From the NCBI RefSeq assembly GCF_041080625.1, contig NZ_CP163518.1:8797501-8861500 (forward strand): a DNA stretch of 64,000 nt. Direction: 5' to 3'. Shown here in pieces: positions 24,705 through 54,759 of the stretch (position 1 is the first letter of the stretch; every line of letters begins with the position of its first letter). The DNA comes from Streptomyces sp. CG1 (GTDB lineage: Bacteria > Actinomycetota > Actinomycetes > Streptomycetales > Streptomycetaceae). The notes beneath the pieces are model-generated. The model saw only the letters and a program-made list of their open reading frames with translations, did not search any database and was not told the origin of the DNA. Both the position numbers and the translations under genes were made by a program.

Positions 24705-25484
24705 TCAGCCGCCAATGAAGTCTTGGATAAGGCGCACGACTTCGGGGGTGCGCTCGAAGACGGCCATGTGCCCGCAGTCGAGTTCGACGTACCGGCTGTC
24801 GTTGATCGCCCGCTGGGTCTCCCGTGCGTGCCGTACGGGGATCCAGTGATCGTACGCGGCGCCGACGACGAGTGTCGGGGCCTCGACACGGGGCAACCGT
24901 TCGCGGATGTCGACCGCGGCGGCCAGCTCCATCTGGCGCAGCACGCCGGTCTCGGCCGAGATCAGCTTCAGCCCCGCCTCGATGCCGTCGGCACCGAGGG
25001 ACGCGAGATGGGGCGCGGAAAAGACCGACAGGGCGGTGAACTCCTGGTAGGTGCGCTCGTCCAGGCCGGGGAGGCGCTGCCACAGGTTCATAAGGAGGCG
25101 CTGGCGCGGATCGTCGTTGCGCGTCCACGGGCAGATCAGCACCAGCCGCCGTACGCGTCCCGGGAACGCGGCTGCGGCCGTTGCGGCGACAACCGAGCCG
25201 AGGGAGAAACCCACCACGTCGACAGGTTCGTCCGTCACCGCCCCCGCCGCCGTCATGACCTGCTCCGCCAACAGGTCGACAGTCAGGGGGGACGACCCGA
25301 GCGGGGTGTCACCGCTGCCTGCGAAGTCCGGTGTGATGACGGTCCGCCAGCGCCTGAACGCATCCACCATATGGTCGAAGTTGGTCGCGGAGTCGGTTCC
25401 TGTGGCGTGCACGAACAGCAGGCCGGGTCCCTGGCCCCGGGCTCGGTAGTGGACCGGTGAGCCGTGTACGAAGACGGTGGGCAC
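24705..25484 (-). CDS. Alpha/beta hydrolase
   Basis: A 259-residue hydrolase; GTG start with only a weak AGAAAGAA ribosome site. The nucleophile elbow is VVGFSLGSVVAAT (Ser), the acid is in GAAYDHWIPV, and the catalytic His is in LDCGHMAVFE. The oxyanion region is LLFVHATGTDS. It is the last gene of the long minus-strand series, 48 bases after the IPP isomerase gene. Possible roles are release or editing of an acyl or ester intermediate in the neighbouring pathway. The substrate is not evident. Confidence 0.8.
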   Translation of the reverse strand: MPTVFVHGSPVHYRARGQGPGLLFVHATGTDSATNFDHMVDAFRRWRTVITPDFAGSGDTPLGSSPLTVDLLAEQVMTAAGAVTDEPVDVVGFSLGSVVAATAAAAFPGRVRRLVLICPWTRNDDPRQRLLMNLWQRLPGLDERTYQEFTALSVFSAPHLASLGADGIEAGLKLISAETGVLRQMELAAAVDIRERLPRVEAPTLVVGAAYDHWIPVRHARETQRAINDSRYVELDCGHMAVFERTPEVVRLIQDFIGG

Positions 25485-25532
25485 GGTGTTTCTTTCTGTC
25501 TCGGCCGACAGGTTCGGGGCGGGTCGAAGGTG

Positions 25533-26093
25533 TCACCAGCCGCCGGCCGGAGCCGTGCGGCGGATCTCGGGCAGCGCGGCGGCCAGCACGGTGGGGAACC
25601 AGGCGGAGAAGGGCGCTCGTTGACGCAGGGCGCTCAGTTCGGCTGCGTCGACGAAGGCCGTCTCGTGCACCTCGGCCGGATCGGGCCGGGGCTGCCGGTA
25701 CGTCGTACCGACGAAGAGGTGGTTGTACTCGTGCTCCACCAAGCCCGAAGCCTCGTCGGGATGGCGGTAGACGACCGTGCCGGCGGGACGCAGGCCGTCC
25801 GGGGCCAGCCCCAGTTCCTCGCGGGTGCGGCGGGTGGCGGCCGCGGCGGGGTCCTCGCCGGGGTAGGGGTGGCCGCAACAGGTGTTGGACCAGACTCCTG
25901 CGGAGTGATACTTGGTCAGGGCCCGGCGCTGGAGGAGCATCCTGCCGTCGGGCGTGAACAGGAACACCGAGAACGCACGGTGCAACGTGCCCGGTTGCGT
26001 GTGAGCGCTGAGCTTCTCCGCCTGGCCGATGGTCTCTCCCTGTGGGTTCACCAGCTCCAGCGCCACGGGGGCGGGACTGTTCGCGTTGGTCAT
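25533..26093 (-). CDS. idi: Isopentenyl-diphosphate delta-isomerase, type 1
   Basis: A 186-residue Nudix-fold enzyme interconverting IPP and DMAPP. Visible hallmarks: the metal/active-site block WSNTCCGHPYPGE with the catalytic Cys, the Nudix-like AAAATRRTREELGL, and EHEYNHLFVG with the catalytic Glu. Length is normal. Its start overlaps the methyltransferase stop (ATGA), placing it in the operon. Most Streptomyces already have an IPP isomerase, so a copy here may supply prenyl units to a cluster product, although no prenyltransferase is seen in the window. Confidence 0.9.
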   Translation of the reverse strand: MTNANSPAPVALELVNPQGETIGQAEKLSAHTQPGTLHRAFSVFLFTPDGRMLLQRRALTKYHSAGVWSNTCCGHPYPGEDPAAAATRRTREELGLAPDGLRPAGTVVYRHPDEASGLVEHEYNHLFVGTTYRQPRPDPAEVHETAFVDAAELSALRQRAPFSAWFPTVLAAALPEIRRTAPAGGW

Positions 26094-26962
26094 GCGCTCT
26101 CCTGCCCGGCGTCGGCGGCTGGCAGGACGATGCCCACGGCCACGGTGTTGCCCTCGCTGATGTAGCTCTGCGGGTGTCGCAGCGGGTTCGCCTCGCCGTC
26201 CGGGTCCAGGAAGGGCTCCCAGTCACCGGCGAAACCGAGGTCGAGGGCCTGCCGGGCGATACGGGCGCACGCCAGCGCGTAGAACCTCAAGGCGGCAGGG
26301 TGCAGCGGTGCATGGTGCTCGATCAGCATGGTGTGCTGCCGCACGGACACCAGCCCCGCAGCGCTCAGCGCGCGGTGCAGATCCCGGGTGCGCAGCAGCT
26401 GGCGGGCGTATCCCGGAGTGCGGGCCGCGTTCCGGAAGAAGTCCGTGAACAGGAACGGGTCCGCCGGGCGGGCGGTGATCAGGGAGGCGTCCAGGTCCTT
26501 GACGGCGACGATTCCGCCGGGCCGCACGACACGGCGCATTTCCCGCAGTGCGCGCAGGAGTTCGTCGTCGTCGAGGTACTGGGTGGTGTTGGCGCACCAG
26601 ACGGCGTCGAAGGTGCCGTCCTGGTACGGCAGGTCCAGGATGTCGCCCTGCCGGACGTCGAAGGCGCAGGTGGCGCGCATGCGGTGCATCCGCTCGGCGG
26701 CCAGCGCGGCGTTCTCCTCGGCGAGGTCGACGGCGGTGACCCGGCCGTGGGGACCGACCAGGTCGGCCAGCCACGGCAGGAAGGCGCCGCTGCCGCAGCC
26801 TGCGTCAAGGACGTGCCATCCGGCGCGGATGCCGGCCTGGTCGAGGGCCGCCTGGTAATGAGGCGCACATGCGTCGAAGTGGGCCTGGACGATCTCCTCG
26901 TGGGTGAAGCCCAGTCCGGTGGACGCGGCGTAGCCCCACGACGCGTGGTCTTTCGTCAGCAT
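26090..26962 (-). CDS. Class I SAM-dependent methyltransferase
   Basis: A 290-residue protein. Motif I VLDAGCGSGAFLPWL is followed by VTAVDLAEEN, the DILDLPYQDGTFDAVWCANT block, and PGGIVAVKDLD. The N-terminal helix (EEIVQAHFDACAPHYQAALD) is typical of UbiE-like small-molecule methyltransferases. The start MLTKDHAS follows AGGTAAGG and lies five bases from the upstream hydrolase stop; its stop overlaps idi. The product site (O, N or C) cannot be judged. Confidence 0.85.
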   Translation of the reverse strand: MLTKDHASWGYAASTGLGFTHEEIVQAHFDACAPHYQAALDQAGIRAGWHVLDAGCGSGAFLPWLADLVGPHGRVTAVDLAEENAALAAERMHRMRATCAFDVRQGDILDLPYQDGTFDAVWCANTTQYLDDDELLRALREMRRVVRPGGIVAVKDLDASLITARPADPFLFTDFFRNAARTPGYARQLLRTRDLHRALSAAGLVSVRQHTMLIEHHAPLHPAALRFYALACARIARQALDLGFAGDWEPFLDPDGEANPLRHPQSYISEGNTVAVGIVLPAADAGQESA

Positions 26963-26967
26963 GTGCC

Positions 26968-27747
26968 TTACCTGTTCCGATCTGCCGTGGCGGCGTCGTC
27001 GAGCAGTGTGGTGAGAAGGTCGGTGACCGTCTTCGGCGCCTCCAGCGGCTGGAGATGGCCGGTGGCCGGCAGCGTGATCAGCCGCCCGCGGGGCAGGGCA
27101 TAGGCCATGCTGGCTGCCTCCTCCGCGGCGACCAGCTCGTCCTCCGCGCCCGTGACGACGAGGGCGGGGACCTTCGTGGCGTGCAGCAGGCCGAGGGAGT
27201 CGGGGCGGGCGGCGATGGCGCGCTGGGCCCAGGCGACCGCCTCCGGCGGAGCGGCCCTTGCCATCGCCATGACCTGGCCGATCAGGTGCGGGTTGCGGGC
27301 TCGGGTGGTGGCACCCAGCAGCAGGGGCGTGGTCCGGGAAACCACCTGGTCGCGCTGGGTGTCGTCCAGCATCAGGTCGGCGAACCTGTGGCGTTCCCCG
27401 GCCGTCTCGGGACCGTCGGCGCTGGCCCGGGTGGCGAGCAGGGCGAGGGCGCGCACGCGGTGGGCGTGGCGGCGCAGGAAGGCCATCGCCACGTAACCGC
27501 CCATGGAGCAGCCCGCGAGCGCGACCTCGGGCAGGCCGTGGGCGTCGAGGAGTGCGGCGAGGTCGTCGGCGACGGTGTCCAGCGACGGCGGCTCGGCACC
27601 GAGCGGGGTAGAGCCGAAACCGCGCTGGTCGGGGGTGACGACGGTGTGGCCGCGTGCCCGCAGCGCTGTCGCCTGGGCCTGCCACATGGCGGAGCTGAAC
27701 GGCAGGGCGTGCAGCAGGACGACTGGGAGGCTGGTCCGGGCCGTCAC
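26968..27747 (-). CDS. Alpha/beta hydrolase (3-oxoadipate enol-lactonase-like)
   Basis: A 259-residue hydrolase: VVLLHALPFSSAMW (oxyanion), VTPDQRGFGSTPL, the nucleophile elbow LAGCSMGGYVAMAF (Ser), the acid in VTGAEDELVAAEE, and the His in PATGHLQPLEAP. The layout matches lactonase/esterase members such as PcaD. It overlaps the LysR-domain gene by four bases and precedes the methyltransferase by five, so it is translationally coupled. It might open a lactone or cleave an ester in the cluster pathway. Confidence 0.83.
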   Translation of the reverse strand: MTARTSLPVVLLHALPFSSAMWQAQATALRARGHTVVTPDQRGFGSTPLGAEPPSLDTVADDLAALLDAHGLPEVALAGCSMGGYVAMAFLRRHAHRVRALALLATRASADGPETAGERHRFADLMLDDTQRDQVVSRTTPLLLGATTRARNPHLIGQVMAMARAAPPEAVAWAQRAIAARPDSLGLLHATKVPALVVTGAEDELVAAEEAASMAYALPRGRLITLPATGHLQPLEAPKTVTDLLTTLLDDAATADRNR

Positions 27748-28397: not shown

Positions 28398-28399
28398 CT

Positions 28400-30267: not shown

Positions 30268-31742
30268 CAGTGCGGCACCTCCCTCGGGCTGATGGCAGCG
30301 AGCAGTTCCTCACGGCGCGGCGGGACGCGGCCGGGCGGAACAGGCCGGGCGGCCGCGGCACGGACCCGGTCCCGGAAGGCGGCGGCGTCGAAGACCTCCG
30401 CGGGCGTGTTCAGGCCCATCAGAACGCGGACGAGACCGCGCCAGACGGTCGTGTCGGCCGCCGCTGCGCGCGCCACCTCGGGCAGGGCGGGGCGTCCGGG
30501 CGCGGCGGGCGGCACCGGCGGCGGTGCGCCGCCCTCGGCCTGGGCCCGCCACAGCCGGGCGCGGGTGAAGCTGTCGTGCACGGCCTGCTCGTACCAGGGG
30601 CGGTGGATCTCGTCGGCGAGGCGCACGGCGTGCTCGCTCTGACTCTCCCCCACCTCCGGGTGGGCGTCGAGAAGTTCGACCAGCCGGAAGGCGTGTTGGA
30701 GGGCGAGGGACATGCCCCGTCCGTACAGCGGGTCGGTGACGCAGACGGCGTCCCCGACCGGGAACAGCCCCGCGACCTGCCGCCGACCGGGCCTGGCCGT
30801 GGAGCGGAGGATGTTCGGCGGCATGGTGATGGCCCGTACGTCCGTCAACGGTGCCGAGACCCGCTCGTCGGTCCACTCAGTCACGTAAGGGGAGAGCCGG
30901 GCGGCGGCGGTGAAGGCGGCGGGCTCGCGCAGCCCGGTCGTGGCCGGGTCGGCAGTCGGCGTGCCGACGGCGATGGCGAAGGTGCCGTTGTCGGCGGGGT
31001 GTGCGACGGCCGCGTAGTGGTCCCAGATGCCACCGGCGGCGTTGCCGCGGTTGAGCGGTCCGGGCAGGGCGCCGTCCGATGCAGTCAGCCGGTAGAACCG
31101 GGTGAAGCAGCGTAGCTGCGTGGGGCCGGTGAGGTCCTCGCCGAGGGGGAATCCGGCCTCCGCGAGCCAGGACAGGGCGGCCGCCTTGCGGCCGGTGGCG
31201 TCCACCACGAACCGGGCGGGCACCTGGGCGCCGCTGTCCGTCACCACCCCCGTGACCCGGGACCGGGACCCGTCGAGGAGCAGGCCCCGCACCGCCGTGC
31301 CGTGCTCGACCGTGACACCCGGCAGAGCGCGCACGGCGCGGTGGAGCAGCAGCTCGAGGAAGGTGCGGCGTACGGCCAGAGCGGTCAGCTCGTGGTCGGC
31401 TCCCGCCCAGGGGCCGGCCGCGCCGTGCGGGTCGTCGGCCGCGGGAGCTGCGTCCATGAGGTCCAGCAACCGCGCCCCCTCCTCAAGAGCCGTGTCGAGC
31501 AGGCGGGGGGCCCACCGGCGCAGCACCCGCACGCCGAGCGAGGTGAGGATGTGGGAGTGGTCGCTCTGCGGCACGGTGGGCCGGTGCCACAGCTCCGCGG
31601 CCTTGGCGGCGGGGCCGTCCGGCGGCGGGGCCGAGCGCTCCAGTACCCGCACCGCATGCCCGTGTTCGGCGAGTGCCAGGGCGGTGGCGAGGCCGGTCAC
31701 GCTGCCGCCGACGACGACGGCGGGCGCGGTCAACGGCGCCAC
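30267..31742 (-). CDS. FAD-dependent monooxygenase/reductase-type enzyme
   Basis: A 491-residue flavoprotein; GTG start inside the end of the preceding methyltransferase gene. FAD-binding GxGxxG variant AVVVGGSVTGLATALALAEH with acidic end VLER, the ADP-ribose Arg in VRRTFLELLLHRAV, and the GD motif FPVGDAVCVTDPLYGRGMSL. The C-terminal 120 residues form a helical tail with an Arg/Pro-rich end. It is closest in pattern to halogenase/geranylgeranyl-reductase-like and aromatic hydroxylase enzymes. It lacks the WxWxIP halogenase motif as far as I can see, so hydroxylation or dehydrogenation is more likely than halogenation. Confidence 0.75.
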   Translation of the reverse strand: MAPLTAPAVVVGGSVTGLATALALAEHGHAVRVLERSAPPPDGPAAKAAELWHRPTVPQSDHSHILTSLGVRVLRRWAPRLLDTALEEGARLLDLMDAAPAADDPHGAAGPWAGADHELTALAVRRTFLELLLHRAVRALPGVTVEHGTAVRGLLLDGSRSRVTGVVTDSGAQVPARFVVDATGRKAAALSWLAEAGFPLGEDLTGPTQLRCFTRFYRLTASDGALPGPLNRGNAAGGIWDHYAAVAHPADNGTFAIAVGTPTADPATTGLREPAAFTAAARLSPYVTEWTDERVSAPLTDVRAITMPPNILRSTARPGRRQVAGLFPVGDAVCVTDPLYGRGMSLALQHAFRLVELLDAHPEVGESQSEHAVRLADEIHRPWYEQAVHDSFTRARLWRAQAEGGAPPPVPPAAPGRPALPEVARAAAADTTVWRGLVRVLMGLNTPAEVFDAAAFRDRVRAAAARPVPPGRVPPRREELLAAISPREVPH

Positions 31743-32587
31743 CCGTGGATGAAGAACACCCGGCGTACGTCCTTGATGTGCCGCGGCGGGACCGGGTCGG
31801 GCCAGCGGCCGAAGTCTGCGCCCGGCTCACCGGGCTGGGTGGCCTCGACGCCGAAGCCGTAGCGGTCGAAGAGGGCCTCGGGCTCGTCGCTGCCGAACAA
31901 CCAGGGACAGCCCCAGCCCGCGAAGACGTCCAGCAGCCCCCGCATGTGGGGCAGGGTCAGCGCGGCGGCGTTGACCAGGTCGGCGGCGATGCGGCTGCCG
32001 GGCGCCATGACGGCGGCCACGTGCTCCAGCATGCGATGCGTGTCCGCCTCGGGGATGTAGTACAGCAGCCCTTCGAGCAGCCAGGTGGACGGCAGCGACG
32101 CGTCGTAGCCGGCGTCGACGAGCCGCTGCTCCCAGTCGTCGGCGGTCAGGTCGACGGCGACGGTGCGGTGGGCCACCCGCGGGGTGACGTCCTGGAGCCG
32201 GTCGGCCTTGAACGCCAGTACGGCAGGCCGGTCGACCTCGAAGTAGCGTATGTGGCCCGGCCAGTCGATCCGGTAGGCGCGGGAGTCCATGCCCGAGGGA
32301 GCCAGCACGACCTGGGTCATTGCCGGGTCCTGGGCGGCGTTCTTGAGGAAGTCGTCGAAGAACCTGGTGCGTATGGCGTTGTAGTCGGGTGTGCTGGGCA
32401 GGGAGCGCGGCCGGTCGGGCGGGAAGGTGGCGTCGCGTACCTCGGCCAGGAGTTCGGGGCCGGCCTCGCCGGCGAGGCGGGCTGCGTAGGGGTCCTCGTA
32501 GAGACGGTCGTGGCGCGAGGTCTCGGCGGCGCGCAGGGCGGCGGTGAGCAGGGCGGTGCGCTCCACCGGGTTGAGCAGGTCGGTCAT
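31730..32587 (-). CDS. PPM/LCMT-type SAM-dependent methyltransferase
   Basis: A 285-residue protein of the leucine-carboxyl-methyltransferase-like group frequent in actinobacteria: ERTALLTAALRAAETSRHDR, LYEDPYAARLAG, QVVLAPSGMDSRAYRIDWP (motif I; most members have 'GAGLDTRA', here APSGMDSRA), EVDRPAVLAFKADRL, STWLLEGLLYYIPEAD. These enzymes usually O-methylate carboxylates or hydroxyls of natural products. The 3' end overlaps the FAD gene by 13 bases. The altered SAM loop (Pro-Ser for Gly-Ala) is worth noting but is within family variation. Confidence 0.8.
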   Translation of the reverse strand: MTDLLNPVERTALLTAALRAAETSRHDRLYEDPYAARLAGEAGPELLAEVRDATFPPDRPRSLPSTPDYNAIRTRFFDDFLKNAAQDPAMTQVVLAPSGMDSRAYRIDWPGHIRYFEVDRPAVLAFKADRLQDVTPRVAHRTVAVDLTADDWEQRLVDAGYDASLPSTWLLEGLLYYIPEADTHRMLEHVAAVMAPGSRIAADLVNAAALTLPHMRGLLDVFAGWGCPWLFGSDEPEALFDRYGFGVEATQPGEPGADFGRWPDPVPPRHIKDVRRVFFIHGWRR

Positions 32588-32606
32588 GGCTTCCTCGTGA
32601 CGGGGT

Positions 32607-34292
32607 TCAGGGGGTGGCGGGGCCGGTCAGCCGCTGCCACAGGGCGTCGTCCTGCCGGAACAGACGGTCCTTGACCTGCGTGGGACGGATGCCGCTGCCG
32701 ACGGCGGTGTGCCAGTCCCGGTGGAAGGCCTCCGGGTCGAGCAGCCGCAGTGCGGGGCCGGAGAGCCGGTGCTCGGCCCTGGTGCGCCGGTAGTCGGCGG
32801 ACTCGTCCTGCAGGGCGTTGTCCAGGAGGACCGTGAAGCGCGTGGCCTCGGCTTCCTTCCAGGGGGTGCTCGGGGCGATGGCGAAGACGTAGCGGGGTGC
32901 CTGGGCGTCCGAGGTGTGCTCGACGCGGCAGGCCAAGTTGACCAGTCCTAGGCCGGTGGCGGTCAGTGCGCTACGCAGGGCGCGCACGACCTGCGACTCG
33001 CGCAGCCGCTCGCCGGCCGCGTCGGACCGGTTTGCACGGCCGGCGTACTCCACGCGCGGCACACCGCCCGGAAGGTCGGCGACGCGGACGACGTCGCCGA
33101 CGGCGTACCGGTACAGCCCGCCGACATGGCTGAAGATCACGTGATACTCGCGTCCGGCCTCCAGTTCGTGCGGCTGTAGCGTCGGCGTGTCGGGCGCGAG
33201 GTCGGCGTCGGCGTCGGCGAACTCGTAGACGGAGGCGGTCGGTACGAGACTGCCCGCCGTGCCGTGCCGGTCCAGTGGCACCCCGACCGGGCCTTCGGAC
33301 GCCGCGACCGGAGCCGGCAGCGCTGTGACGCCGCTGCCGAAATGCTCGCGCAGCGTCGGCAGGTACAGGGAGGCCACGCCCGTGGTCCAGCCGAACAGGG
33401 CGCGGATCCGTGGCCACACGTGCGCGGGGGACACGGTGCCGAAGTAGTCGGCGAGCCGTTGGAGTTCGGCGGCGCGGGCCGGGTCGGGGCTGCCGTACGG
33501 GGCGCCGCCGAGAGTGCCGTCGCGGACCTCCCGGACGATGCGCTCCCACCACAGGGTGAGCTGGTAGGGCACGGCCGCGATCATTGCCGGGTTGATGCCA
33601 ATGAGGCAGCGCACGTCGCTCTGCACCGCCACGCGCAGCCGCAGGTACATCTTCTCCAAGTGGTCGTCGGGGGCGACGTCCACCGGCAGGGTGGCCCAGG
33701 GCGCGGCGGTTCCGAGCTCCGCGGAGAGCGGCTCGCCGAACTTCTCGCCGAAATCGACCTGGCTGGCCCCGACATGGGGGCGGCCGTCGGCTGTGGTCGG
33801 GGGCGCGGCCAGCGGGTCGTGCTTGAGGTTCAGTACCGCGTCGGGGCGGTGCGTGACTTCGGGGAAGTTCTCGATGAGGGGCGCCCAGGCCGCGTAGTAG
33901 AACGGGAAGAAGGTGGTGCGCATGAACCGCGGGGTCACTGGGATCTTCTTGTGGGCGCCGGTGCTGCCGCTGCTGGTGAAGTACACGATCGGCTGGTCGG
34001 CGGAGAGCAGGTTGGGCTCACCTGCGGCCATGCGCTCGATCAGCGGTGCGTGCGCGGCGTAGTCCTGGACCGGAACGGCCTTGCGGAAGTCGTCGATGTC
34101 GCGTAGGCGGTCGAAGCCGTGCCGCCTGCCGAACTCGGTGTCCGCATTGAAACCGAGCAGGTCGGCGAGGACTCGCTGCTGCTGACCGCGCAGGTCGGCG
34201 AGCGCCTCGGTGAGCCGGTCGCGCTCGGCGAGCACCCGCCGGCGGTACCGGTCGGCGTGTCCGGGAGCCGCCCATCCCTTGGGTGCGGTCAC
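32607..34292 (-). CDS. GH3-family acyl-adenylate/amide (or ester) synthetase
   Basis: A 561-residue protein; GTG start overlapping the kinase stop (GTGA) with GGAGGTG upstream. Members activate carboxylates with ATP and join them to amines (plant GH3 conjugates jasmonate or auxin with amino acids). Motif 1 is IVYFTSSGSTGAHKKIPVT, motif 2 region VASLYLPTLREHFG with ASEGPVGVP, motif 3 GLYRYAVGDVVRV. All ATP-binding blocks are present and the length is normal. In this operon it could activate the acyl group loaded by, or released to, the KASIII-like enzymes, or form an amide with the cyclitol product. Confidence 0.82.
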   Translation of the reverse strand: MTAPKGWAAPGHADRYRRRVLAERDRLTEALADLRGQQQRVLADLLGFNADTEFGRRHGFDRLRDIDDFRKAVPVQDYAAHAPLIERMAAGEPNLLSADQPIVYFTSSGSTGAHKKIPVTPRFMRTTFFPFYYAAWAPLIENFPEVTHRPDAVLNLKHDPLAAPPTTADGRPHVGASQVDFGEKFGEPLSAELGTAAPWATLPVDVAPDDHLEKMYLRLRVAVQSDVRCLIGINPAMIAAVPYQLTLWWERIVREVRDGTLGGAPYGSPDPARAAELQRLADYFGTVSPAHVWPRIRALFGWTTGVASLYLPTLREHFGSGVTALPAPVAASEGPVGVPLDRHGTAGSLVPTASVYEFADADADLAPDTPTLQPHELEAGREYHVIFSHVGGLYRYAVGDVVRVADLPGGVPRVEYAGRANRSDAAGERLRESQVVRALRSALTATGLGLVNLACRVEHTSDAQAPRYVFAIAPSTPWKEAEATRFTVLLDNALQDESADYRRTRAEHRLSGPALRLLDPEAFHRDWHTAVGSGIRPTQVKDRLFRQDDALWQRLTGPATP

Positions 34293-34918
34293 CGGGTCAG
34301 CACCTCCGCCACGGCGTCGGCGGTCCGGGCCACACTGGGCTGTTCCTCGATGATCGTCACCGGCAGTTCCCGTATCTCTTCTAGCATCAGTTTCCGAAGG
34401 CTCTTCTGGTAGCTCTCGAAGCCCAGCCACCCGGGGCGTTCGCCGAAGTACTCCAGTGGGTTGAGGCGCGCGCCGTCGCCGGAGCGCCGCCAGGCAGAGG
34501 CGGGCGAGACGTCGACGTAGACCACGGCGCGGGGCTGTGGGAAGGAGCGCCACCAGGTGTACATGGGGTTGTGGTCGATGCCGGCGAGCCGGCACTTGGC
34601 GAGGATCTTGTAGTAGTACGAGTCCATCAGCAGCGGCACGTCCGTGTCATGGCGCTCCACCTGGTCCCTGAGGTGGACCACGGCGGTCTGGAGCAGAGTG
34701 GCCAGGAAGTCGGCGGAGTACACGGTGCCGAGGTGCGGCAGTACGTCCTGGACGACTTGCCGTCGCAGCTCGGTGATGAGTGCGTGTCCGGGCCCCACGA
34801 GGCCGTCGTCGGTGGACAGCGTCCGCCACCCGGGCAGCCGGGTCGCGAGCTCCGTCATGGCGGACGACTTGCCGGCGCCGTCCGGGCCGAGGACCACGTA
34901 GAAGGGCCGGTCAGTCAT
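34289..34918 (-). CDS. Thymidylate-kinase-like P-loop kinase
   Basis: A 209-residue kinase. Walker A VVLGPDGAGKSSAMTELA (residues 8-25), an LLMDSYYYKILAK block where TMPKs have the DRY/DRF motif, and the lid region AVVYVDVSPASAWRRSGDGA. True TMPKs have a stricter DR(Y/W/H) motif and a Gln/Arg-rich lid, so the substrate is probably not TMP. Position between the GH3 and KASIII-like genes, with overlaps at both ends, suggests phosphorylation of a pathway intermediate such as a cyclitol. Known C7-cyclitol kinases (AcbM/ValC) belong to other families, so this is only inference. Confidence 0.6.
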   Translation of the reverse strand: MTDRPFYVVLGPDGAGKSSAMTELATRLPGWRTLSTDDGLVGPGHALITELRRQVVQDVLPHLGTVYSADFLATLLQTAVVHLRDQVERHDTDVPLLMDSYYYKILAKCRLAGIDHNPMYTWWRSFPQPRAVVYVDVSPASAWRRSGDGARLNPLEYFGERPGWLGFESYQKSLRKLMLEEIRELPVTIIEEQPSVARTADAVAEVLTR

Positions 34919-38195: not shown

Positions 38196-38227
38196 CGGTG
38201 GTTCTTCCTTAGCTGCGAGAGGGGCGT

Positions 38228-39013: not shown

Positions 39014-39048
39014 GCCTGTCCTTCAGTTCGTGGAGATGGCCGGCGTCG

Positions 39049-40119
39049 TCACGCGGCGCGCGGGTCGAGGGCCACCTTGGGGGCGGTGCGGCCCGTGTCC
39101 TGGAGCAGTGCGAAGGCGTCGCCCACCCGCTCCAGCGGAACGACGTCGGCGATCATCCCGTCCGCGGTGAGCGCTTTGTCCCGGAAGAGCTCGAGGACGC
39201 GGTCGTACTGGTCGAGTCCGTGTCGGATGCCGTGGACGGTGATGCCGCGCAGGACCAGTTCGCCGACGTGGACGCCGTCGACGGGCTCGGTCGCGACGCC
39301 GATGGCGGCGATCCGGCCGCCGACGCCCGTGCAGCGCAGCGCGTCGTGGAACGCGGGGGCCGCGCCGGACGCCTCGACGACGACGTCGTAGTGGCCGGCG
39401 GGGGCCTGGCCGGGGAGGAAGACGCGGCGGGCACCCATGCGGCGTGCCGTGGCGAGGCCGTTGTCCTCGACGCCGACGACGTCGACCGCACCGGCCATGC
39501 GTGCGGTGAGCTGGACCGCCAGCAGGCCGATGGTGCCGGTGCCGATGACGAGCGCCCGGTCGCCGGGGACGCAGCGCACCCGCTCCAGGCCCTCCAGCAC
39601 CGTGACGGCGGGCTCCACCAGCATCGCCTCCGCGTCCTGGACGTCCTCGGGTACGACGCTCAGGGCGCGCGCGGGCATCCGCAGGTACTCGGCGGCGGCG
39701 CCCTGCTGCCCGTACAGGCCGACTTCGCGCAGTGCTCCGCATTCGTTGCGGCGCCCGCGGTGGCAGGCCCGGCAGTCGCCGCAGCTGATCATGGTGTGGC
39801 CGACGACCCGGTCACCGACGGCGATCCGCCGGGTGGCGTCGCGCTCTTTGTCCGCGGCGACGGCGGCCACCCGGCCGACCCACTCGTGGCCGAAGACGTG
39901 CGGGAAGGGTGCCCGGCCGTCGCGTACGTAACTGGCGGTGCCGTGCAGCAGCTCCAGGTCCGTGCCGCACAGGCCGACGCGGAGTGGCTCCACCAGCACC
40001 TCGCCGGGCGCCGGTGCGGGGATGGGCAGGTCGAGGACCTTGGTGACGTTCGGGGCGGCGACAGCGGCCGCGCGCATCGTTCCGGTCGGCCAGGCGTCGG
40101 AGTTGGGCCGGTGGGTCAT
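39049..40119 (-). CDS. Zinc-dependent polyol-type dehydrogenase
   Basis: A 356-residue medium-chain dehydrogenase. Catalytic zinc GLCGTDLELLHG and FGHEWVGRV, structural Cys set CGDCRACHRGRRNEC, and nucleotide fold ALVIGTGTIGLLAVQL followed by VGVEDN, pointing to NAD. The pattern is sorbitol/L-threonine dehydrogenase-like, suited to a polyhydroxylated substrate. The start overlaps the cupin stop (ATGA). In the cetoniacytone, acarbose and validamycin pathways dehydrogenases of this class act on cyclitols, so it fits the cluster. Confidence 0.85.
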   Translation of the reverse strand: MTHRPNSDAWPTGTMRAAAVAAPNVTKVLDLPIPAPAPGEVLVEPLRVGLCGTDLELLHGTASYVRDGRAPFPHVFGHEWVGRVAAVAADKERDATRRIAVGDRVVGHTMISCGDCRACHRGRRNECGALREVGLYGQQGAAAEYLRMPARALSVVPEDVQDAEAMLVEPAVTVLEGLERVRCVPGDRALVIGTGTIGLLAVQLTARMAGAVDVVGVEDNGLATARRMGARRVFLPGQAPAGHYDVVVEASGAAPAFHDALRCTGVGGRIAAIGVATEPVDGVHVGELVLRGITVHGIRHGLDQYDRVLELFRDKALTADGMIADVVPLERVGDAFALLQDTGRTAPKVALDPRAA

Positions 40120-40550
40120 GCGGCGTGCTCCTCGGTCGGGCCGGACGGAACGCCGATGGCGCGTTCGTGCACGGGAAGTTCGGGTACGCGTGGCGGCAGG
40201 GCGGAGCGGGAGGCGCTCGACAGGACGCGCAGCACGAGGAGTTCGGCGCCGTCCGGGCCAGCCTGGACGACGGCGCCGGATGTGGCGCACACGAGCACCA
40301 GGTCGCCGGCCGCGACGGGCCGGGCTTCGTCCCGGGTGACCAGCTCGGCGGAACCGTGGACGAGGTGGACGGCCTGCTCCACGCCGGGGTCGTCGTGCCG
40401 GCTGGAGCTGCCGGGCGGCAGGACGACGTGGTCGAAGGTCTCGCACTCGCTGTGCAGCATGCCGCGGCGGGCCAGGCAGCGCCAGGTAGCGGCGGGGGTG
40501 CCTGTGGGCCGCAATGCGCGGGTGGGCGTGCCGGGCTCGGTGACGATCAT
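40116..40550 (-). CDS. Single-domain cupin protein
   Basis: A 144-residue cupin. The motif-1 region is FDHVVLPPGSSSRHDDPGVE with HLVHGSAELVTRD, and motif 2 is around AGDLVLV. The metal ligands are incomplete compared with classical cupins: one His in motif 1 and no clear second-motif His. It may therefore be a metal-poor binding or isomerase domain. It overlaps genes on both sides by four bases. Its product works next to a second, two-domain cupin. Confidence 0.7.
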   Translation of the reverse strand: MIVTEPGTPTRALRPTGTPAATWRCLARRGMLHSECETFDHVVLPPGSSSRHDDPGVEQAVHLVHGSAELVTRDEARPVAAGDLVLVCATSGAVVQAGPDGAELLVLRVLSSASRSALPPRVPELPVHERAIGVPSGPTEEHAA

Positions 40551-41323
40551 CGGGTCTCCACGGCCTGCAGATGCAGGGAGAGTTCGGCGTGGAACAGGCG
40601 CAGGCCGTCCTCGGCCGCGGTCAGCCGGGCGGAGGTGCCCTTGGGCAGAGTGACCGACACGCCGGTGCGCAGTGGTGCCTCGCTGTCGGCGGTGTGGGCG
40701 GTGCCCGAGCCGGACAGGACGAACACGGTGTGCTCGGTGTCGGTGGAGGCGAGTTCGAGGTGCCCGCCTGCGCCCACGGTCACGGCCTCGACGAGCCGCA
40801 ACGGACCGGTCAGGAACGTGGTGGGATCGATGCGCTGTTCTTCGAGCAGTTGGTGGACCCTTGCGTTCACGTCATCCTCTGTTCGCCTACCGACGGCATC
40901 GGGTGGGGTGGTGATGCGGCCGCGCAGTGCGCGGCTGGTCTGGGGGGAGCGAATCTCGGCCACCAGCCAGTCGAGGCGGCTGGTTCCGGTGTTCCTCAGG
41001 CCGTGGACGGTGCCCAGGCCGGTGAGTATCAGGGAGCCGGCCGACACCGGGTGCGGGGTGCCGTCGAGGTACATCTCGCCCTCGCCGGACAGCAGGAAAT
41101 ACAGCTCCTCGGTGCGGGTGTGCCGGTGCTCCCCGCTGACGCCACCGGGCGGGATGCTGGCCCACTCGACTGCCTCCCACTCACCGGCCAGGTCGTGCTG
41201 GCCTGCCAGGCACTTCCAGTGCGAGAGGCCCTTGGCCCCGTGCACGCCGTGCACGTCGGCCGGGGTGGTGACGTCAGCGACCAGGACGGCGGCGCCGGAA
41301 GAGGCGGTGGCGGACGCGCTCAT
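40547..41323 (-). CDS. Two-domain cupin (bicupin)
   Basis: A 258-residue bicupin. The N-terminal cupin has a full metal set: GEHRHTRTEELYFLLSGEGE (two His, Glu) and LGTVHGLRNTG (His). The C-terminal cupin keeps only the fold (LELASTDTEHTVFVLSGSGT) with fewer ligands. Its ATG overlaps the cyclase stop. Cupins in sugar and cyclitol pathways act as isomerases, epimerases, dehydratases or dioxygenases; here dehydration to an enone is an attractive possibility but not shown by sequence. Confidence 0.75.
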   Translation of the reverse strand: MSASATASSGAAVLVADVTTPADVHGVHGAKGLSHWKCLAGQHDLAGEWEAVEWASIPPGGVSGEHRHTRTEELYFLLSGEGEMYLDGTPHPVSAGSLILTGLGTVHGLRNTGTSRLDWLVAEIRSPQTSRALRGRITTPPDAVGRRTEDDVNARVHQLLEEQRIDPTTFLTGPLRLVEAVTVGAGGHLELASTDTEHTVFVLSGSGTAHTADSEAPLRTGVSVTLPKGTSARLTAAEDGLRLFHAELSLHLQAVETR

Positions 41324-42576
41324 CGGCCCGCCCGCTCGTGCTGGAGGGAGCGCAGGTCGGCCACCGCGTCGGCGAGTTCCTGGGCTGTCACGTCGTTGAC
41401 GAAGGTGGCGCGGCCGATACCGACGGGCAGTGGGAGGCGCTGCTGGCCGTCGCGGTGCCTGACCGTGTCCTGGAGGGCGTCGGCGAGGATCTCCCCGGTC
41501 AGCAGGTCGTTCCAGCTGGGCAGTTCGAGGGCGCGCATGGTGGCGAGCACCCGGCCGCGGTCGGTTTCGCTGACCATGCCGCGATGCTGGGCCAGCACGG
41601 TGGTGAGAGCCATGTCGACGCAGACCGCCTCGCCGTGCAGCAGTTCGGGCAGGGCGCGCATCTCGACGGTGGGGCTGAAGGTGTGCCCGTAGTCGACGAC
41701 GCGCTCCAGCTTGGCCTCCCAGAGGTTGGGCTGGAGTTCTTCGAGCATGCCGTGAATGGCGCGGCGCAGGGTCTCGGCTCCGGCGAGCTCGCCAGTGGAG
41801 GACAGGCCCTGGAACTTCTCCTCCAGCAGGAGCGCGCCGTGCCTTTCGAGGATCTGGAAGAGCCCCTCGTCCTTGATGAGGGCGATCTTGAGGATCTCGG
41901 CGAGTCCGTTGCTGATGTGCCGCCGGTCCAGGGTGTTGAGGAAGCAGCGGTCCAGCAGGGTCAGATCGGCCGGGAAGTAGGTGCCCAGGCGGTTCTTGTG
42001 GCCGTTGAAGTTGACGCCGGTCTTGGCTCCGACACCCGCGTCGACCAGGCCGATGAGTGTGGTGGGGACGCGGACGAACGGGGTGCCGCGCCGGTAGAGG
42101 CTGCTGACCAGGCCGACGATGTCCATGAGGACACCGCCGCCGATGACGATGACGGGCTCGTGGCGACGGGCGATGCCGAAGCTGTCGATTTCCTCCACGA
42201 TGCGAGCGGCGGTGTCGAAGCTCTTCACGGACTCGTCCGCCGGGACCACGCACATGTGGTGGTCCACGCCGTGGTGGTCGAAGTAGGCGCGTATGCGGTC
42301 GCCGTGGAGCAGGTCCACGTTGGCGTCGACGACGACGAACCGACGCACCCCTGCTCTGGTGCTCACGCCGTTCGCCCCAGCCTCCAGGAGGTCAGTCCGG
42401 GCGGGGTTCAGGACATCGTCGGTGAAGCGGATTTCGTAGCTGACCGGCTTGGCGGTCCGGACGACCCAGGAGTCGACCTGCTGGCTGAATGTGTAGAGGC
42501 CGGACGGTTCCTGGGAAGCGCCGGCGCCGGCCTGCGATCCGGCGGCCTGGGGCCGCAGGACGTCGGAAGGGAGCAT
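41320..42576 (-). CDS. Sedoheptulose-7-phosphate cyclase, 2-epi-5-epi-valiolone synthase type
   Basis: A 418-residue member of the dehydroquinate-synthase-like sugar phosphate cyclases. The ATG at 42576 is used because GAGGTG lies seven bases before it; an ATG five codons upstream has no such site. Visible: GGGVLMDIVG (NAD site, about 146-155), PTTLIGLVDAGVGAKTGVN (171-189) with GHKN, the metal ligand Glu227 in LAEILK, DYGHTFSP (295-302) and HGEAVCVDMAL. The FSP after GHT and the Asp in VDMAL separate it from dehydroquinate synthases and match the EEVS group. Whether it makes 2-epi-5-epi-valiolone or the EVS isomer cannot be decided by eye. It is the first gene of the operon. Confidence 0.9.
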   Translation of the reverse strand: MLPSDVLRPQAAGSQAGAGASQEPSGLYTFSQQVDSWVVRTAKPVSYEIRFTDDVLNPARTDLLEAGANGVSTRAGVRRFVVVDANVDLLHGDRIRAYFDHHGVDHHMCVVPADESVKSFDTAARIVEEIDSFGIARRHEPVIVIGGGVLMDIVGLVSSLYRRGTPFVRVPTTLIGLVDAGVGAKTGVNFNGHKNRLGTYFPADLTLLDRCFLNTLDRRHISNGLAEILKIALIKDEGLFQILERHGALLLEEKFQGLSSTGELAGAETLRRAIHGMLEELQPNLWEAKLERVVDYGHTFSPTVEMRALPELLHGEAVCVDMALTTVLAQHRGMVSETDRGRVLATMRALELPSWNDLLTGEILADALQDTVRHRDGQQRLPLPVGIGRATFVNDVTAQELADAVADLRSLQHERAGR

Positions 42577-42833
42577 GGGAGCACACCTCATAGCTGGAGA
42601 GAGCTGCGTTGCGGGCGGGCGGTGGGGGGCCGACGGAACCGGCTCTCCCTCGTCGCGGGATGGCTCAATCCGTCCCGCCAGCGAGACTCTCAATCAAATT
42701 CTATGACTTGTCAAGTATTTTGAAATGCATGCGTGGTGCATTACCGTGAGCGCCTGGCGCTTGGGACAGCCCGGGGACCGCGCACCCGGCACCCTCAACG
42801 CCCCTCCTCCGCAAGCCACTTCGAAGGATCACC
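42577..42833. promoter_or_regulatory. Divergent AT-rich promoter region of the cyclitol cluster
   Basis: A 257-base gap between the cyclase operon and the MFS exporter. AT-rich core at 42690-42745. It contains the palindrome ACTTGTCAAGT (42706-42716), which includes a minus-strand TTGACA -35 candidate, and the inverted repeat AATGCA-N7-TGCATT (42724-42742). These could be a shared operator for both transcripts. Confidence 0.55.
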
Positions 42834-44036: not shown

Positions 44037-44045
44037 GGCTCCCTC

Positions 44046-45227
44046 GTGACCACCAGAAGCGCCCGGCCCGGTACCCGTGCCCGGCTGACGTCCCTCACGG
44101 GTGTCCGCTTCTTCGCAGCGTTCGCCGTGTTCCTCTTCCACATCGCGATCGGCAGACCGTTCGCCGACCAGCCAGTCTCGGATGGCGTGTTCACCGTCTT
44201 CAGCAAGGCCGGCTGGATAGGGGTGTCGTTCTTCTTCGTCCTCAGCGGGTTCATCCTCACCTGGTCGGCCCGGCCGCAGGACTCCACCACGGCCTTTTGG
44301 CGCCGACGGCTGGTCAAGGTGTTCCCCAACCACCTGGTGACCTACACGGCCACCATGGCCCTGTACGCGGGCGCCGCCGTCGCGGGCGCCACGGCGGTCC
44401 TCAACCTCCTGCTGCTGCAGCCGTGGATGCCGGTGGTGGACGTGTACTTCAGCGTCGACAACCCGAGCTGGTCCCTGGGGTGCGAGCTGTTCTTCTACCT
44501 GCTCTTCCCGCTGCTGCACCGGGGCATCGTCCGCATCAGGGCGCACCGTCTGTGGTGGTGGGCCGTGTCCCTGATGGGTGCCGTCATCGTGTTGCCCGCG
44601 GTGGTGAGCGCTGTGGTGCCGGCCGAACCGAGCATGCTCGCCCCGGACAAGCCCGTGCCCGCGCTGGCCTTCTGGCTGGTCTACATCTTCCCAGTGTCCC
44701 GGGTACTCGACTTCGTGCTCGGCATCGTCATGGCGCGGATCGTACTGGAGGGCCGCTGGACCGGTGTCAGGCCGCTTCCGTCGGCTGTGCTGTTCGCGGT
44801 CTGCTACGCCGGGTCGCTGTACCTGCCTGCCGTGTATGCGCTGAACGCGGCGACCATCGTGCCTGTGGCCCTGCTGATCCCGGCCGTGGCGCACCTGGAC
44901 ATCGCGGGCCGGCGGACCTGGCTGCGCGGCCGGTCCCTGCAGTGGCTCGGCGAGGTCTCCTTCGCCTTCTATCTCGTCCACTGGCCGGTGCTCGTGTACG
45001 GACGCCGCCTGCTCGGCGAACAGCGGAAGTACTCCTGGCCGGTGGGCGTCGTCTTGATCGCCACGTGCGCCACGCTCAGCCTGCTGATCGCCGGACTGCT
45101 GTACACGGGGGTGGAAAGGCCCGCCATGCGCCGGTGGGCGTCGTCACGGCGCCGGCCGCGCCCGGTCGCCGCCGTCCCGGCCGACGAACTGTCCGCTCCG
45201 CCCACGGCGGCGGACCCCACTCACTGA
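44046..45227 (+). CDS. Membrane acyltransferase (acyltransferase-3/OafA type)
   Basis: A 393-residue integral membrane protein with about ten helices; GTG start ten bases after the MFS stop. The catalytic start reads VRFFAAFAVFLFHIAIGRPF, with the His-Arg region expected of acyltransferase-3, followed by FFFVLSGFILTW, and later WSLGCELFFYLLFP and FAFYLVHWPVLVYG. The family O-acylates sugars, antibiotics and polymers, using acyl-CoA across the membrane. In this unit it may acylate the exported product, giving the cluster a third possible acyl-transfer activity. Confidence 0.85.
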   Translation: MTTRSARPGTRARLTSLTGVRFFAAFAVFLFHIAIGRPFADQPVSDGVFTVFSKAGWIGVSFFFVLSGFILTWSARPQDSTTAFWRRRLVKVFPNHLVTYTATMALYAGAAVAGATAVLNLLLLQPWMPVVDVYFSVDNPSWSLGCELFFYLLFPLLHRGIVRIRAHRLWWWAVSLMGAVIVLPAVVSAVVPAEPSMLAPDKPVPALAFWLVYIFPVSRVLDFVLGIVMARIVLEGRWTGVRPLPSAVLFAVCYAGSLYLPAVYALNAATIVPVALLIPAVAHLDIAGRRTWLRGRSLQWLGEVSFAFYLVHWPVLVYGRRLLGEQRKYSWPVGVVLIATCATLSLLIAGLLYTGVERPAMRRWASSRRRPRPVAAVPADELSAPPTAADPTH

Positions 45228-45237
45228 AAGGTTCGCC

Positions 45238-46152
45238 GTGCGATTCGGCATCAGTCTCCCGAACTTCGGCGCGCACATCGACGCCGACTCCCTGCGCGGC
45301 TGGGCAACGACCGCCGAGCGACTCGGCTACCACCTGCTCACCGTCTCCGACCACATCGCCCTGACCTCGGACGCACACCGCCGCTCTCCGGTGCCCTTCT
45401 ACGACTCGTTCACCACGCTGGCATGGCTCGCTGGCCAGACGAGCAGCATCGAGCTGGGCACCGCTGTCGCCATCGCCCCGCAGCGCCACCCGCTGCAACT
45501 GGCCCGCATCACCGCGTCCCTGGACCAGCTCTCCGGCGGCCGCCTCGTGCTGGGTGTTGGCGTCGGCTGGGCCCGCCAGGCGTTCGAGGCGCTCGGCGTC
45601 CCCTACGACCGGCGCGGGGCGCTGACCGACGAGTACCTGCGCGCACTGAAGGTGCTGTGGACCGACGCGATCGCCACCTTCCACGGCGACACGGTGCACT
45701 TCGACCGCGTGCACACCGCGCCGCGCCCGGCCCGCGCCCCGCACCCCCCGGTCTGGGTGGGTGGCAACAGCCGCGCAGCCGTCCGCCGGGCCGCCAGGTA
45801 CGGGGACGCCTGGCATCCCATGTGGCCCCAGGGTCCCGAGCTGCCGGCGGCCCTGCGGACGCTGACCGAGGACGCCTCGGCGGCCGGGCGGCCGACGCCG
45901 GCCTTCTGCCCCTCAATACCCCTCGCACTGACGGAGCGTCCCCTGCCCGACCAGTACCGGCGCCTGGGGCAGGGCAGCCTCGAGCAGTTGCACGCCGATC
46001 TGCTCCTGCTGGACGAACTGGGTGCCCGGTACGTCACCCTCAACACGGAGCTCGGAGACCAGCGCCTGCGCCGCCCGGCCGAGCAGGACTGGGAGCTGTT
46101 CGAGCTCCTGGCACGGACGGTCATCGACACCGATGGCGAGACCGTGCGCTGA
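45238..46152 (+). CDS. LLM-class F420-dependent oxidoreductase
   Basis: A 304-residue luciferase-like protein, GTG start ten bases after the acyltransferase. Motifs: MRFGISLPNFGAHID, TVSDHIALTSD, ELGTAVAIAPQRHPLQLARI, the LVLGVGVGWARQAFEALGV loop, PPVWVGGNSRAAVRRAA. These features fit the actinobacterial F420 group more than FMNH2 monooxygenases. A reduction or oxidation of a ring ketone/enone in the cyclitol pathway is possible. Confidence 0.85.
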   Translation: MRFGISLPNFGAHIDADSLRGWATTAERLGYHLLTVSDHIALTSDAHRRSPVPFYDSFTTLAWLAGQTSSIELGTAVAIAPQRHPLQLARITASLDQLSGGRLVLGVGVGWARQAFEALGVPYDRRGALTDEYLRALKVLWTDAIATFHGDTVHFDRVHTAPRPARAPHPPVWVGGNSRAAVRRAARYGDAWHPMWPQGPELPAALRTLTEDASAAGRPTPAFCPSIPLALTERPLPDQYRRLGQGSLEQLHADLLLLDELGARYVTLNTELGDQRLRRPAEQDWELFELLARTVIDTDGETVR

Positions 46153-54746: not shown

Positions 54747-54759
54747 GCGGCTCACCGGC

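What the first reader, a model, noticed from the sequence alone, without database searches (positions are those of the whole stretch)
24705..46152. Unusual C7-cyclitol (carbasugar) gene cluster with acyl-transfer enzymes and no aminotransferase
A sedoheptulose-7-phosphate cyclase (41320-42576) leads a long coupled minus-strand series with a CetB-like VOC protein, SDR, zinc dehydrogenase, cupins, two Ser-type KASIII proteins, a GH3 synthetase, a kinase and methyltransferases; a divergent exporter, membrane acyltransferase and F420-type enzyme complete it. Known EEVS clusters (acarbose, validamycin, cetoniacytone, pyralomicin) make aminated or glycosylated products. This set suggests a neutral, acylated cyclitol, chemically near gabosines/COTC (a crotonyl ester of a C7 enone). 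Product identity is inference.
Basis: partly seen in the sequence, partly recalled or inferred. Interest (0 to 1): 0.88.

Follow-up and report, generated by a model that had tools for sequence, protein, structure and literature searches.

The report
Acylated cyclitol cluster with roaming cassette
A Streptomyces gene cluster that probably builds a small carbon-ring sugar mimic and attaches acyl groups to it has, in the same operon, a nine-gene cassette of unknown function that also sits beside quite different genes in other bacteria.

Summary
The genes are real: 19 consecutive minus-strand genes (42576 to 24705; [quoted passage not shown] No aminotransferase, nucleotidyltransferase or glycosyltransferase family was hit among 27 genes scanned (20.3-46.2 kb). 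Both KASIII proteins show the Ser-His-Asp pattern of CerJ/Pau29-type acyltransferases and lack DpsC's first catalytic His, so ester transfer is likely. The cluster reaches further left (sulfotransferase, MarR, quinone-oxidoreductase-like gene).

GH3, kinase, two methyltransferases, flavoenzyme, two unknown proteins, LysR-domain protein and a hydrolase form a nine-gene cassette, already noted without function in the rubiginone cluster (PMC8487521), complete in 13 of 19 loci compared here, few of them near a cyclitol cyclase. It adjoins KAS-type cyclitol clusters in the window and SID486, in Actinosynnema pretiosum, and at least partly in S. melanogenes. These cassettes are not one clade (AU p 0.002 with directly read junctions only), so separate recruitment is likely; horizontal exchange is not excluded. 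A COTC/gabosine-like product is untested.

The parts
41320..42576 (-). [quoted passage not shown]
   Evidence: PF01761/PF24621; 4p53 ValA 458 bits; 55% to ValA, 67% to AcbC (P0056, Actinoplanes sp. SE50), 39% to 5tpr (DDGS by recall), 30% to DHQS 3okf; tree
40547..41323 (-). g18: double cupin; role in the cyclitol pathway inferred from its linkage to EEVS
   Evidence: PF07883; beside EEVS in many other EEVS loci
39049..40119 (-). g16: zinc-dependent medium-chain dehydrogenase
   Evidence: PF08240/PF00107
38228..39013 (-). g15: short-chain dehydrogenase/reductase
   Evidence: PF13561
37128..38195 (-). g14: two-domain VOC protein, probable cyclitol epimerase (CetB-like; CetB recalled)
   Evidence: PF13669/PF00903, two stretches; only weak PDB relatives, best methylmalonyl-CoA epimerase at 33 bits
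36017..37087 (-). g13 KASa: KASIII-like O-acyltransferase (Ser nucleophile, Asn in place of DpsC's first catalytic His); a close ortholog was seen only in SID486 (93%)
   Evidence: a 61% relative beside NRPS/PKS-like genes in another genome; more distant relatives are common (87 of 297 genomes)
34911..35924 (-). g12 KASb: KASIII-like O-acyltransferase (Ser nucleophile, Phe in place of DpsC's first catalytic His); conserved in this cyclitol cluster type
34289..34918 (-). cassette gene 1 (g11): P-loop kinase-like protein, RubP4 counterpart
   Evidence: weak Thymidylate_kin, below cut-off; no PDB hit
32607..34292 (-). cassette gene 2 (g10): GH3 acyl-adenylating synthetase, RubP3 counterpart
   Evidence: PF03321; plant GH3 amido synthetases in PDB
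31730..32587 (-). cassette gene 3 (g09): LCM/TIGR00027-type methyltransferase, RubM3 counterpart
   Evidence: PF04072, TIGR00027
30267..31742 (-). cassette gene 4 (g08): FAD-dependent oxidoreductase/monooxygenase, RubB4 counterpart
   Evidence: PF01494
29143..30267 (-). cassette gene 5 (g07): 374-aa protein of no known family (HYP374), RubP2 counterpart
   Evidence: no Pfam or NCBIfam hit; 407 relatives among the 8000 candidates scored
28400..29146 (-). cassette gene 6 (g06): DUF6182 protein, RubP1 counterpart
   Evidence: PF19680 343 bits
27744..28397 (-). cassette gene 7 (g05): LysR substrate-binding domain protein without a DNA-binding hit, RubA3 counterpart
   Evidence: PF03466 (scanned in the longer open frame)
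26968..27747 (-). cassette gene 8 (g04): alpha/beta hydrolase, PcaD-like, RubO counterpart
   Evidence: PF00561, TIGR02427 below cut-off
26090..26962 (-). cassette gene 9 (g03): class I methyltransferase, RubM2 counterpart
   Evidence: PF13649/PF08241
25533..26093 (-). g02: isopentenyl-diphosphate isomerase; among the loci compared seen only in window and SID486
   Evidence: NF002995 and TIGR02150 above cut-off
24705..25484 (-). g01: alpha/beta hydrolase, relatives near other cyclitol clusters
   Evidence: PF00561
24247..24654 (+). MerR-family regulator
   Evidence: PF13411; 87% in SID486, 45% near L029 and L009
23029..24219 (-). second MFS transporter
   Evidence: PF07690; 95% in SID486
22120..22998 (-). 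quinone-oxidoreductase-like dehydrogenase, conserved around this cyclitol cluster type
   Evidence: PF08240/PF13602; 42-48% counterparts in six related clusters, 91% in SID486
21628..22068 (+). MarR-family regulator; counterparts in four related clusters and SID486
   Evidence: PF01047
20328..21503 (+). sulfotransferase; counterparts in three related clusters (ERV7, S. melanogenes, JHA26) and SID486
   Evidence: PF13469 86 bits
42834..44036 (+). g20: MFS exporter, divergent from the cyclase
   Evidence: PF07690
44046..45227 (+). g21: membrane acyltransferase (Acyl_transf_3)
   Evidence: PF01757
45238..46152 (+). g22: F420-type luciferase-like oxidoreductase; membership uncertain
   Evidence: PF00296, TIGR03619; no counterpart in the closest clusters; 33-49% relatives near four other EEVS loci

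Best explanation
The region is two joined units. Unit A (20.3-25.5 and 34.9-45.2 kb) turns sedoheptulose 7-phosphate into 2-epi-5-epi-valiolone (g19), epimerises it (VOC g14), adjusts its oxidation state (SDR, Zn dehydrogenase, cupins), and esterifies the neutral cyclitol with acyl groups carried on Ser of two KASIII-like acyltransferases (g12, g13); a membrane acyltransferase and a sulfotransferase may decorate it and MFS proteins export it. Unit B (26090-34918) is a portable nine-gene cassette (the rubM2-rubP4 block) with its own chemistry around a GH3 acyl-adenylating ligase, a kinase-like protein, methyltransferases, a flavoenzyme and two unknown proteins. Its repeated joining to KAS-type cyclitol clusters suggests that its product, an activated carboxylic acid or its conjugate, ends up on the cyclitol. 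Shown: gene content, order, residue patterns, conservation of both units, cassette phylogeny. Inferred: every reaction, and the coupling of A with B.
For: Cyclase. KAS residues: the His of DpsC in 'LPHMG' is Phe in g12 and its seven aligned orthologs and Asn in g13 and its SID486 ortholog; Ser, the later His and Asp are kept, the pattern described for the ester-forming Pau29 and CerJ (passages of PMC4425429). Unit A without B: JHA26 (L008), Micromonospora qiuiae (L009), G158 (L083) and, with a 44% KAS, G335 (L116) have EEVS, cupins, Zn dehydrogenase, SDR, VOC and KAS and no match to the 374-aa cassette protein in their genomes. Unit B without A: G134, G071 and G062 have the full cassette and only distant cyclases at 29% identity. 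Nine genes in 13 of 19 cassette loci (order), matching the nine rub genes in order and size. At least one cassette gene lies beside 5 of 12 KAS-bearing EEVS loci but 0 of 37 KAS-free ones (Fisher p 4e-4 by locus, 0.007 by lineage; 0.042 if only the two lineages with a fully read junction count). Window and SID486 cassettes group with those of G247, G239 and G358, where no EEVS was found in the DNA fetched; holding window, SID486 and A. pretiosum together is rejected (AU p 0.0018).
Against: No metabolite is known. No carrier-protein motif was found at 17-50 kb except in a PKS fragment at 48102, so the acyl donor is unexplained. The cassette stands alone in many genomes, so it needs no cyclitol; its presence here could be chance neighbourhood. 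The association test is post hoc and rests on few lineages. In S. melanogenes the junction runs into a contig end inside GH3, which is itself in two overlapping pieces. In ERV7 only the kinase is seen at the cyclitol contig's edge, and the cassette found elsewhere in that genome lies inside a long contig, without kinase or GH3 start and without EEVS in the 20 kb fetched, so joining in ERV7 is not shown. Horizontal exchange of cassettes between cyclitol clusters could mimic separate recruitments; A. pretiosum is a long branch. 2-Epi-valiolone synthases (EVS) could not be compared.
Confidence: 0.5

Rival explanations
1. Passenger cassette: unit A alone makes the acylated (perhaps sulfated) cyclitol; the nine-gene cassette is an independent locus with its own product that happens to lie in the same operon.
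For: Cassette complete with no EEVS in the fetched DNA in G134, G071, G062, G239, G302 and others (genome-wide for the first three); in the rubiginone paper the block is taken for an insertion, and the six of its nine gene names that I searched occur only in that section.
Against: Cassette genes beside 5 of 12 KAS-bearing and 0 of 37 KAS-free EEVS loci; g12 and g11 overlap by 8 bp; the joined cassettes are not one clade.
Confidence: 0.35
2. One reading: one pathway in which GH3, kinase and methyltransferases build a COTC/gabosine-like crotonyl ester of a C7 enone.
For: EEVS, VOC, redox enzymes and acyltransferases are present; no amination family hit.
Against: GH3, kinase and methyltransferases are conserved as a block without EEVS elsewhere; crotonyl specificity cannot be read from sequence.
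Confidence: 0.1
3. Isoprenoid-linked cyclitol: the IPP isomerase (g02) feeds a prenyl group onto the cyclitol, as in BE-40644 (described in PMC5133447, passages).
For: IPP isomerase above curated cut-offs inside the operon; more distant cassette-like loci lie beside HMG-CoA-reductase-like and UbiA-like genes (identified by reading the sequence, not by a family search).
Against: No prenyltransferase or terpene synthase family was hit in the 27 genes; g02 was found in no compared cluster except SID486.
Confidence: 0.08

Closest known systems
Nine-gene block rubM2-rubO-rubA3-rubP1-rubP2-rubB4-rubM3-rubP3-rubP4 of the rubiginone cluster, Streptomyces sp. CB02414, and DWB77_01891-01899 of S. hundungensis (PMC8487521)
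   Same: Same nine kinds of genes in the same order, with sizes 288, 260, 212, 254, 373, 488, 291, 567, 209 aa against 290, 259, 217, 248, 374, 491, 285, 561, 209 aa here
   Different: There it sits in an angucycline cluster or outside any recognised cluster; here it shares an operon with C7-cyclitol genes. The rub sequences themselves were not compared
EEVS-type C7-cyclitol clusters (acarbose acb, validamycin val)
   Same: Cyclase of the EEVS clade; a VOC protein is a plausible epimerase
   Different: No nucleotidyltransferase, pseudoglycosyltransferase or aminotransferase family hit in the 27 genes
Cetoniacytone A cluster (Wu et al. 2009; paper not held; gene content recalled)
   Same: EEVS with a CetB-like VOC protein and oxidoreductases
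   Different: No amination family hit; acyl transfer by two KASIII-like enzymes
KASIII-like acyltransferases CerJ, ChlB3 and Pau29; DpsC as the nearest solved relative
   Same: Nucleophile-His-Asp pattern, first condensing His replaced
   Different: Ser nucleophile as in Pau29, not Cys as in CerJ and ChlB3; the presumed acceptor is a cyclitol
(+)-Streptol of Candidatus Burkholderia kirkii and vertebrate gadusol
   Same: Products linked to EEVS without pseudo-oligosaccharide formation (passages; streptol's structure recalled)
   Different: No KASIII acyl transfer is mentioned in the passages read

Membership tests
[quoted passage not shown]
   quick tree, and the DDGS and DHQS rows have long branches
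[quoted passage not shown]
   no named EVS sequence was at hand; one search listed one paper
[quoted passage not shown]
   the window was only compared with ValA along the aligned segments
[quoted passage not shown]
   enzyme assay needed
C7N aminocyclitol pathway (validamycin, acarbose, cetoniacytone) | Aminotransferase, or nucleotidyltransferase with pseudoglycosyltransferase, in the cluster | tested here: not met
   27 genes from 20.3 to 46.2 kb scanned, no such family hit; 2 of 27 have no Pfam hit
DpsC/CosE-type condensing KASIII | Cys/Ser-His-His triad | tested here: not met
   the aligned first His is Phe in g12 and Asn in g13
CerJ/Pau29-type KASIII-like acyltransferase | Cys/Ser-His-Asp triad with the first His lost | tested here: met
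   activity not tested
rubM2-rubP4 nine-gene cassette | Nine genes in the stated order with matching sizes | tested here: met
   rub sequences themselves were not compared
COTC/gabosine pathway | Crotonyl (or no) ester on a C7 enone | not testable with these tools
   no gene cluster reference found in the held library
BE-40644-like isoprenoid cyclitol | Prenyltransferase in the cluster | tested here: not met

The most novel reading that the evidence does not exclude
A portable nine-gene cassette makes a so far unknown activated building block that several kinds of biosynthetic clusters can use, and it has been recruited at least twice independently by the same kind of C7-cyclitol cluster, whose KASIII-like acyltransferases attach that building block to a neutral cyclitol: a new class of acylated carbasugar and a new kind of exchangeable biosynthetic module with two enzyme families of unknown function.
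Probability: 0.25. Interest if true: 0.75.

Novelty: new variant of a known kind. Interest (0 to 1): 0.5.

Why it matters
If the units act together, this is a route to neutral, acylated carbasugars unlike acarbose- or validamycin-type products, and it offers a way to learn what a widespread cassette of unknown function does: HYP374 relatives (E <= 1e-60) occur in 28 of 392 Streptomyces genomes examined. The cyclitol side has a predictable first intermediate, so comparing clusters with and without the cassette makes its contribution directly testable. Even if the cassette is a passenger, separating it corrects which genes belong to the cyclitol pathway.

Tried and rejected
(1) HYP374 as an aminoacyl-tRNA-synthetase-like ligase: a profile search of PDB sequences gave ArgRS at E = 1 on residues 6-43, and I noticed a HIGH-like stretch by eye. 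Profile comparison with ArgRS and MshC alignments gave probabilities of 0.2%, no better than the 14 unrelated controls (0.1-1.0%). Rejected at sequence level; a fold comparison was not possible.

No model, no fold search.

(3) 'Unit A alone' for ERV7 (L005) and S. melanogenes (L006), as first classed, was dropped when a kinase gene (ERV7, S. melanogenes) and a GH3 gene (S. melanogenes) were found beyond the first stretches.

(4) 'Cassettes at cyclitol clusters share one origin' was rejected by the trees and AU tests. In one search the A. pretiosum row lacked one of three proteins; one search has all three.

(5) Paper searches that returned nothing: EEVS with GH3 and DUF6182; one search listed nothing on this type of cluster that I recognised.

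(6) Plasmid search: one 43% relative of HYP374 on a Streptomyces plasmid record, no evidence of a common plasmid carrier.

Full report
What is there. The window lies in an 11.1-Mb genome. From 42576 down to 24705, 19 genes follow one another on the minus strand with gaps from -13 to +92 bp; seven of the 18 junctions are 4-bp overlaps. The cyclase has ValA (4p53) as its best solved relative (458 bits against 254 for 5tpr, a DDGS by recall, and 131 for the DHQS 3okf). [quoted passage not shown] SE50), 39% to 5tpr and 30% to 3okf. It sits among EEVS sequences in a tree of 78 rows (quick method, long outgroup branches; seven rows were dropped before building: four duplicates, two truncated gene calls and one divergent A. 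pretiosum cyclase, and L031 gave no row). EVS could not be compared.

No amination or pseudoglycosylation gene. The 27 genes scanned between 20.3 and 46.2 kb hit no PLP aminotransferase, nucleotidyltransferase, glycosyltransferase, prenyltransferase or terpene synthase family at E <= 0.001. Two of the 27 (g07, g17) have no Pfam hit.

The acyltransferases. g12 and g13 are closest to DpsC (240 and 272 bits), then ChlB3, CerJ and relatives. In the printed alignments the nucleophile is Ser in both, and the His of the 'GHLG' region (CHIG in g13) and the following Asp are kept. The His of DpsC in 'LPHMG', which aligns with Val in CerJ, is Phe in g12 and Asn in g13; Phe is shared by all eight KASb sequences aligned, Asn by g13 and its SID486 counterpart. 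[quoted passage not shown] Passages of PMC9573744 give Cys-His-Asp for ChlB3 and CerJ. So O-acyl transfer is the likely function; acceptor and donor are inference. One carrier-protein motif was found by a simple pattern scan at 17-50 kb, in the PKS fragment at 48102.

The cluster reaches further left. A quinone-oxidoreductase-like gene has counterparts around six other cyclitol clusters of this type, a MarR regulator around four and a sulfotransferase (20328-21503) around three, and all are kept in Streptomyces sp. SID486 at 80-91% (families). Related clusters also have a transaldolase (L005, L083) or a berberine-bridge-type oxidase (L006, L009, L029) for which the window has no counterpart among its annotated genes. 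The F420-type protein g22 has no counterpart in the closest clusters but relatives of 33-49% near four other EEVS loci.

Two units. Unit A (EEVS, double cupin, cupin-like protein, Zn dehydrogenase, SDR, VOC, KASb, with MFS nearby) exists without unit B in Streptomyces sp. JHA26 (L008), Micromonospora qiuiae (L009), G158 and, with a more distant KAS (44%), G335; these four genomes have no match to the 374-aa cassette protein, and a GH3 search found nothing in three of them and a 32% match far away in G158. Unit B (kinase, GH3, LCM methyltransferase, FMO, HYP374, DUF6182, LysR-domain, hydrolase, methyltransferase) is complete in 13 of the 19 cassette loci compared; three others break in GH3 and lack the kinase, one lacks the hydrolase and last methyltransferase, two lack four genes (gene order). 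EEVS was hit in 2 of the 19 fetched stretches (window and A. pretiosum); in SID486 it lies further along the same contig. Genomes G134, G071, G062 and G028 (the last seen only on a short contig and not among the 19) hold cassette genes and only distant cyclases at 29% identity. Outside four groups of related loci the flanks share little: {G134, G071, G062, G250}, {S. melanogenes C12, ERV7}, {S. melanogenes C46, G300} and {own second copy, G247}, the last through PKS-rich flanks (window and SID486 were not in that comparison).

The cassette has been seen before. Section 7 of PMC8487521 (read whole; outline and abstract; passages) lists nine consecutive rubiginone-cluster genes, rubM2 to rubP4, in the same order and of nearly the same sizes, found also in S. 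hundungensis outside any recognised cluster. The authors suggest insertion by horizontal transfer or transposition and, in what I read, give no function. I matched names, order and sizes, not the rub sequences themselves. So the cassette is known as an oddity; what I add is its range of contexts and its repeated place beside C7-cyclitol clusters.

Is the joining more than chance? Among the 49 distinct EEVS loci inspected (window included, duplicates merged, flanks of up to about 10 kb), at least one cassette gene lies beside 5 of 12 that also carry a KAS relative and 0 of 37 that do not (Fisher p 4.2e-4, or 0.0074 if sister strains count once; 0.042 if only the two lineages with a fully read junction are counted). 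This test was framed after seeing the data, flanks are limited, and some contigs are short (L007, L019). The five are the window, SID486, S. melanogenes, ERV7 and Actinosynnema pretiosum. In the window, SID486 and A. pretiosum the junction is read directly; in A. pretiosum a berberine-bridge-type oxidase lies between KAS and kinase. In S. melanogenes kinase and GH3 (two overlapping pieces, residues 3-386 and 350-455 of 561) follow the acyltransferase and MFS genes and then the contig ends, while two other contigs begin or end inside GH3 and carry the rest of the cassette; which of the two continues it is inferred. In ERV7 only the kinase is seen at the contig edge; the cassette in that genome lies within a 1.77-Mb contig with only the end of GH3 and no EEVS in the fetched stretch, so there the joining is not shown.

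Separate recruitments. With four cassette proteins concatenated in 11 loci, holding the cassettes of the joined (or presumed joined) loci together is rejected (AU p 1.3e-88 for the four Streptomyces rows, 1.9e-11 with A. pretiosum, tree). With three proteins in 20 loci the result is the same (p 4.9e-50 and 4.1e-7): window and SID486 group with G247, G239 and G358, S. melanogenes C12 and ERV7 with G304 and G302. These tests take S. melanogenes C12 and ERV7 as joined, which is inferred. With only the directly read junctions, holding window, SID486 and A. pretiosum together is rejected at p 0.0018 (A. pretiosum with all three proteins, still a long branch). Exchange of cassettes between cyclitol clusters would also break up the clade, so 'recruited more than once' is likely, not proven.

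How common. EEVS relatives (E <= 1e-80) occur in 38 of 392 Streptomyces genomes, HYP374 relatives (E <= 1e-60) in 28 of 392. G250 and G300 hold both at clearly different places; G337 holds both on different contigs, the cassette ending near a contig end, so linkage there is undetermined. So the two units are not generally linked.

What the cassette makes remains open. Its GH3 relatives in the PDB are plant amido synthetases, so an acid-conjugating step is the best guess.

Literature limits. Only the held open-access library was searched; the cetoniacytone paper is not held, and CetB is named from recall. MIBiG and antiSMASH were not available.

Noticed in passing
window 17433-18404 (-) and 18575-19201 (+): AfsA-type gamma-butyrolactone synthesis gene next to a TetR regulator left of the cluster, a possible signalling control.
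   Followed up: partly
window 47046-50222 (+): A type I PKS fragment (AT without its start, ACP, start of KS) followed by an IS110-family transposase: looks like a remnant.
   Followed up: no
window 51477-58930: LacI regulator, two glycoside hydrolase family 32 proteins and a solute-binding protein: a likely fructan-use locus, unrelated to the finding.
   Followed up: no
own genome G000:C1:9662690-9663799 (L076, L139): A second, shortened copy of the nine-gene cassette (71% for HYP374) beside a type I PKS-like gene in the same genome.
   Followed up: partly
L079, L080, L081, L078: More distant HYP374 and DUF6182 pairs, mostly with a kinase, lie beside UbiA-like, phosphoenolpyruvate-synthase-like and AfsA-like genes, an HMG-CoA-reductase-like gene, or an NRPS (names by reading the sequences).
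   Followed up: partly
own genome G000:C1:7020724-7021710: A 375-aa open frame matching the start and end of the arginyl-tRNA synthetase model but not its middle; similar forms appear in several of the 15 relatives searched.
   Followed up: no
L116-L135: 15 of 20 further Streptomyces EEVS loci pair the cyclase with double-cupin and VOC relatives, 13 of them without a KAS relative: a broad cluster family.
   Followed up: partly
G394:C10:339394-341035 (L148): S. melanogenes has another kinase and partial GH3 beside SbcCD-like genes (named by reading), the same place as the cassette in G300; probably an assembly break.
   Followed up: partly
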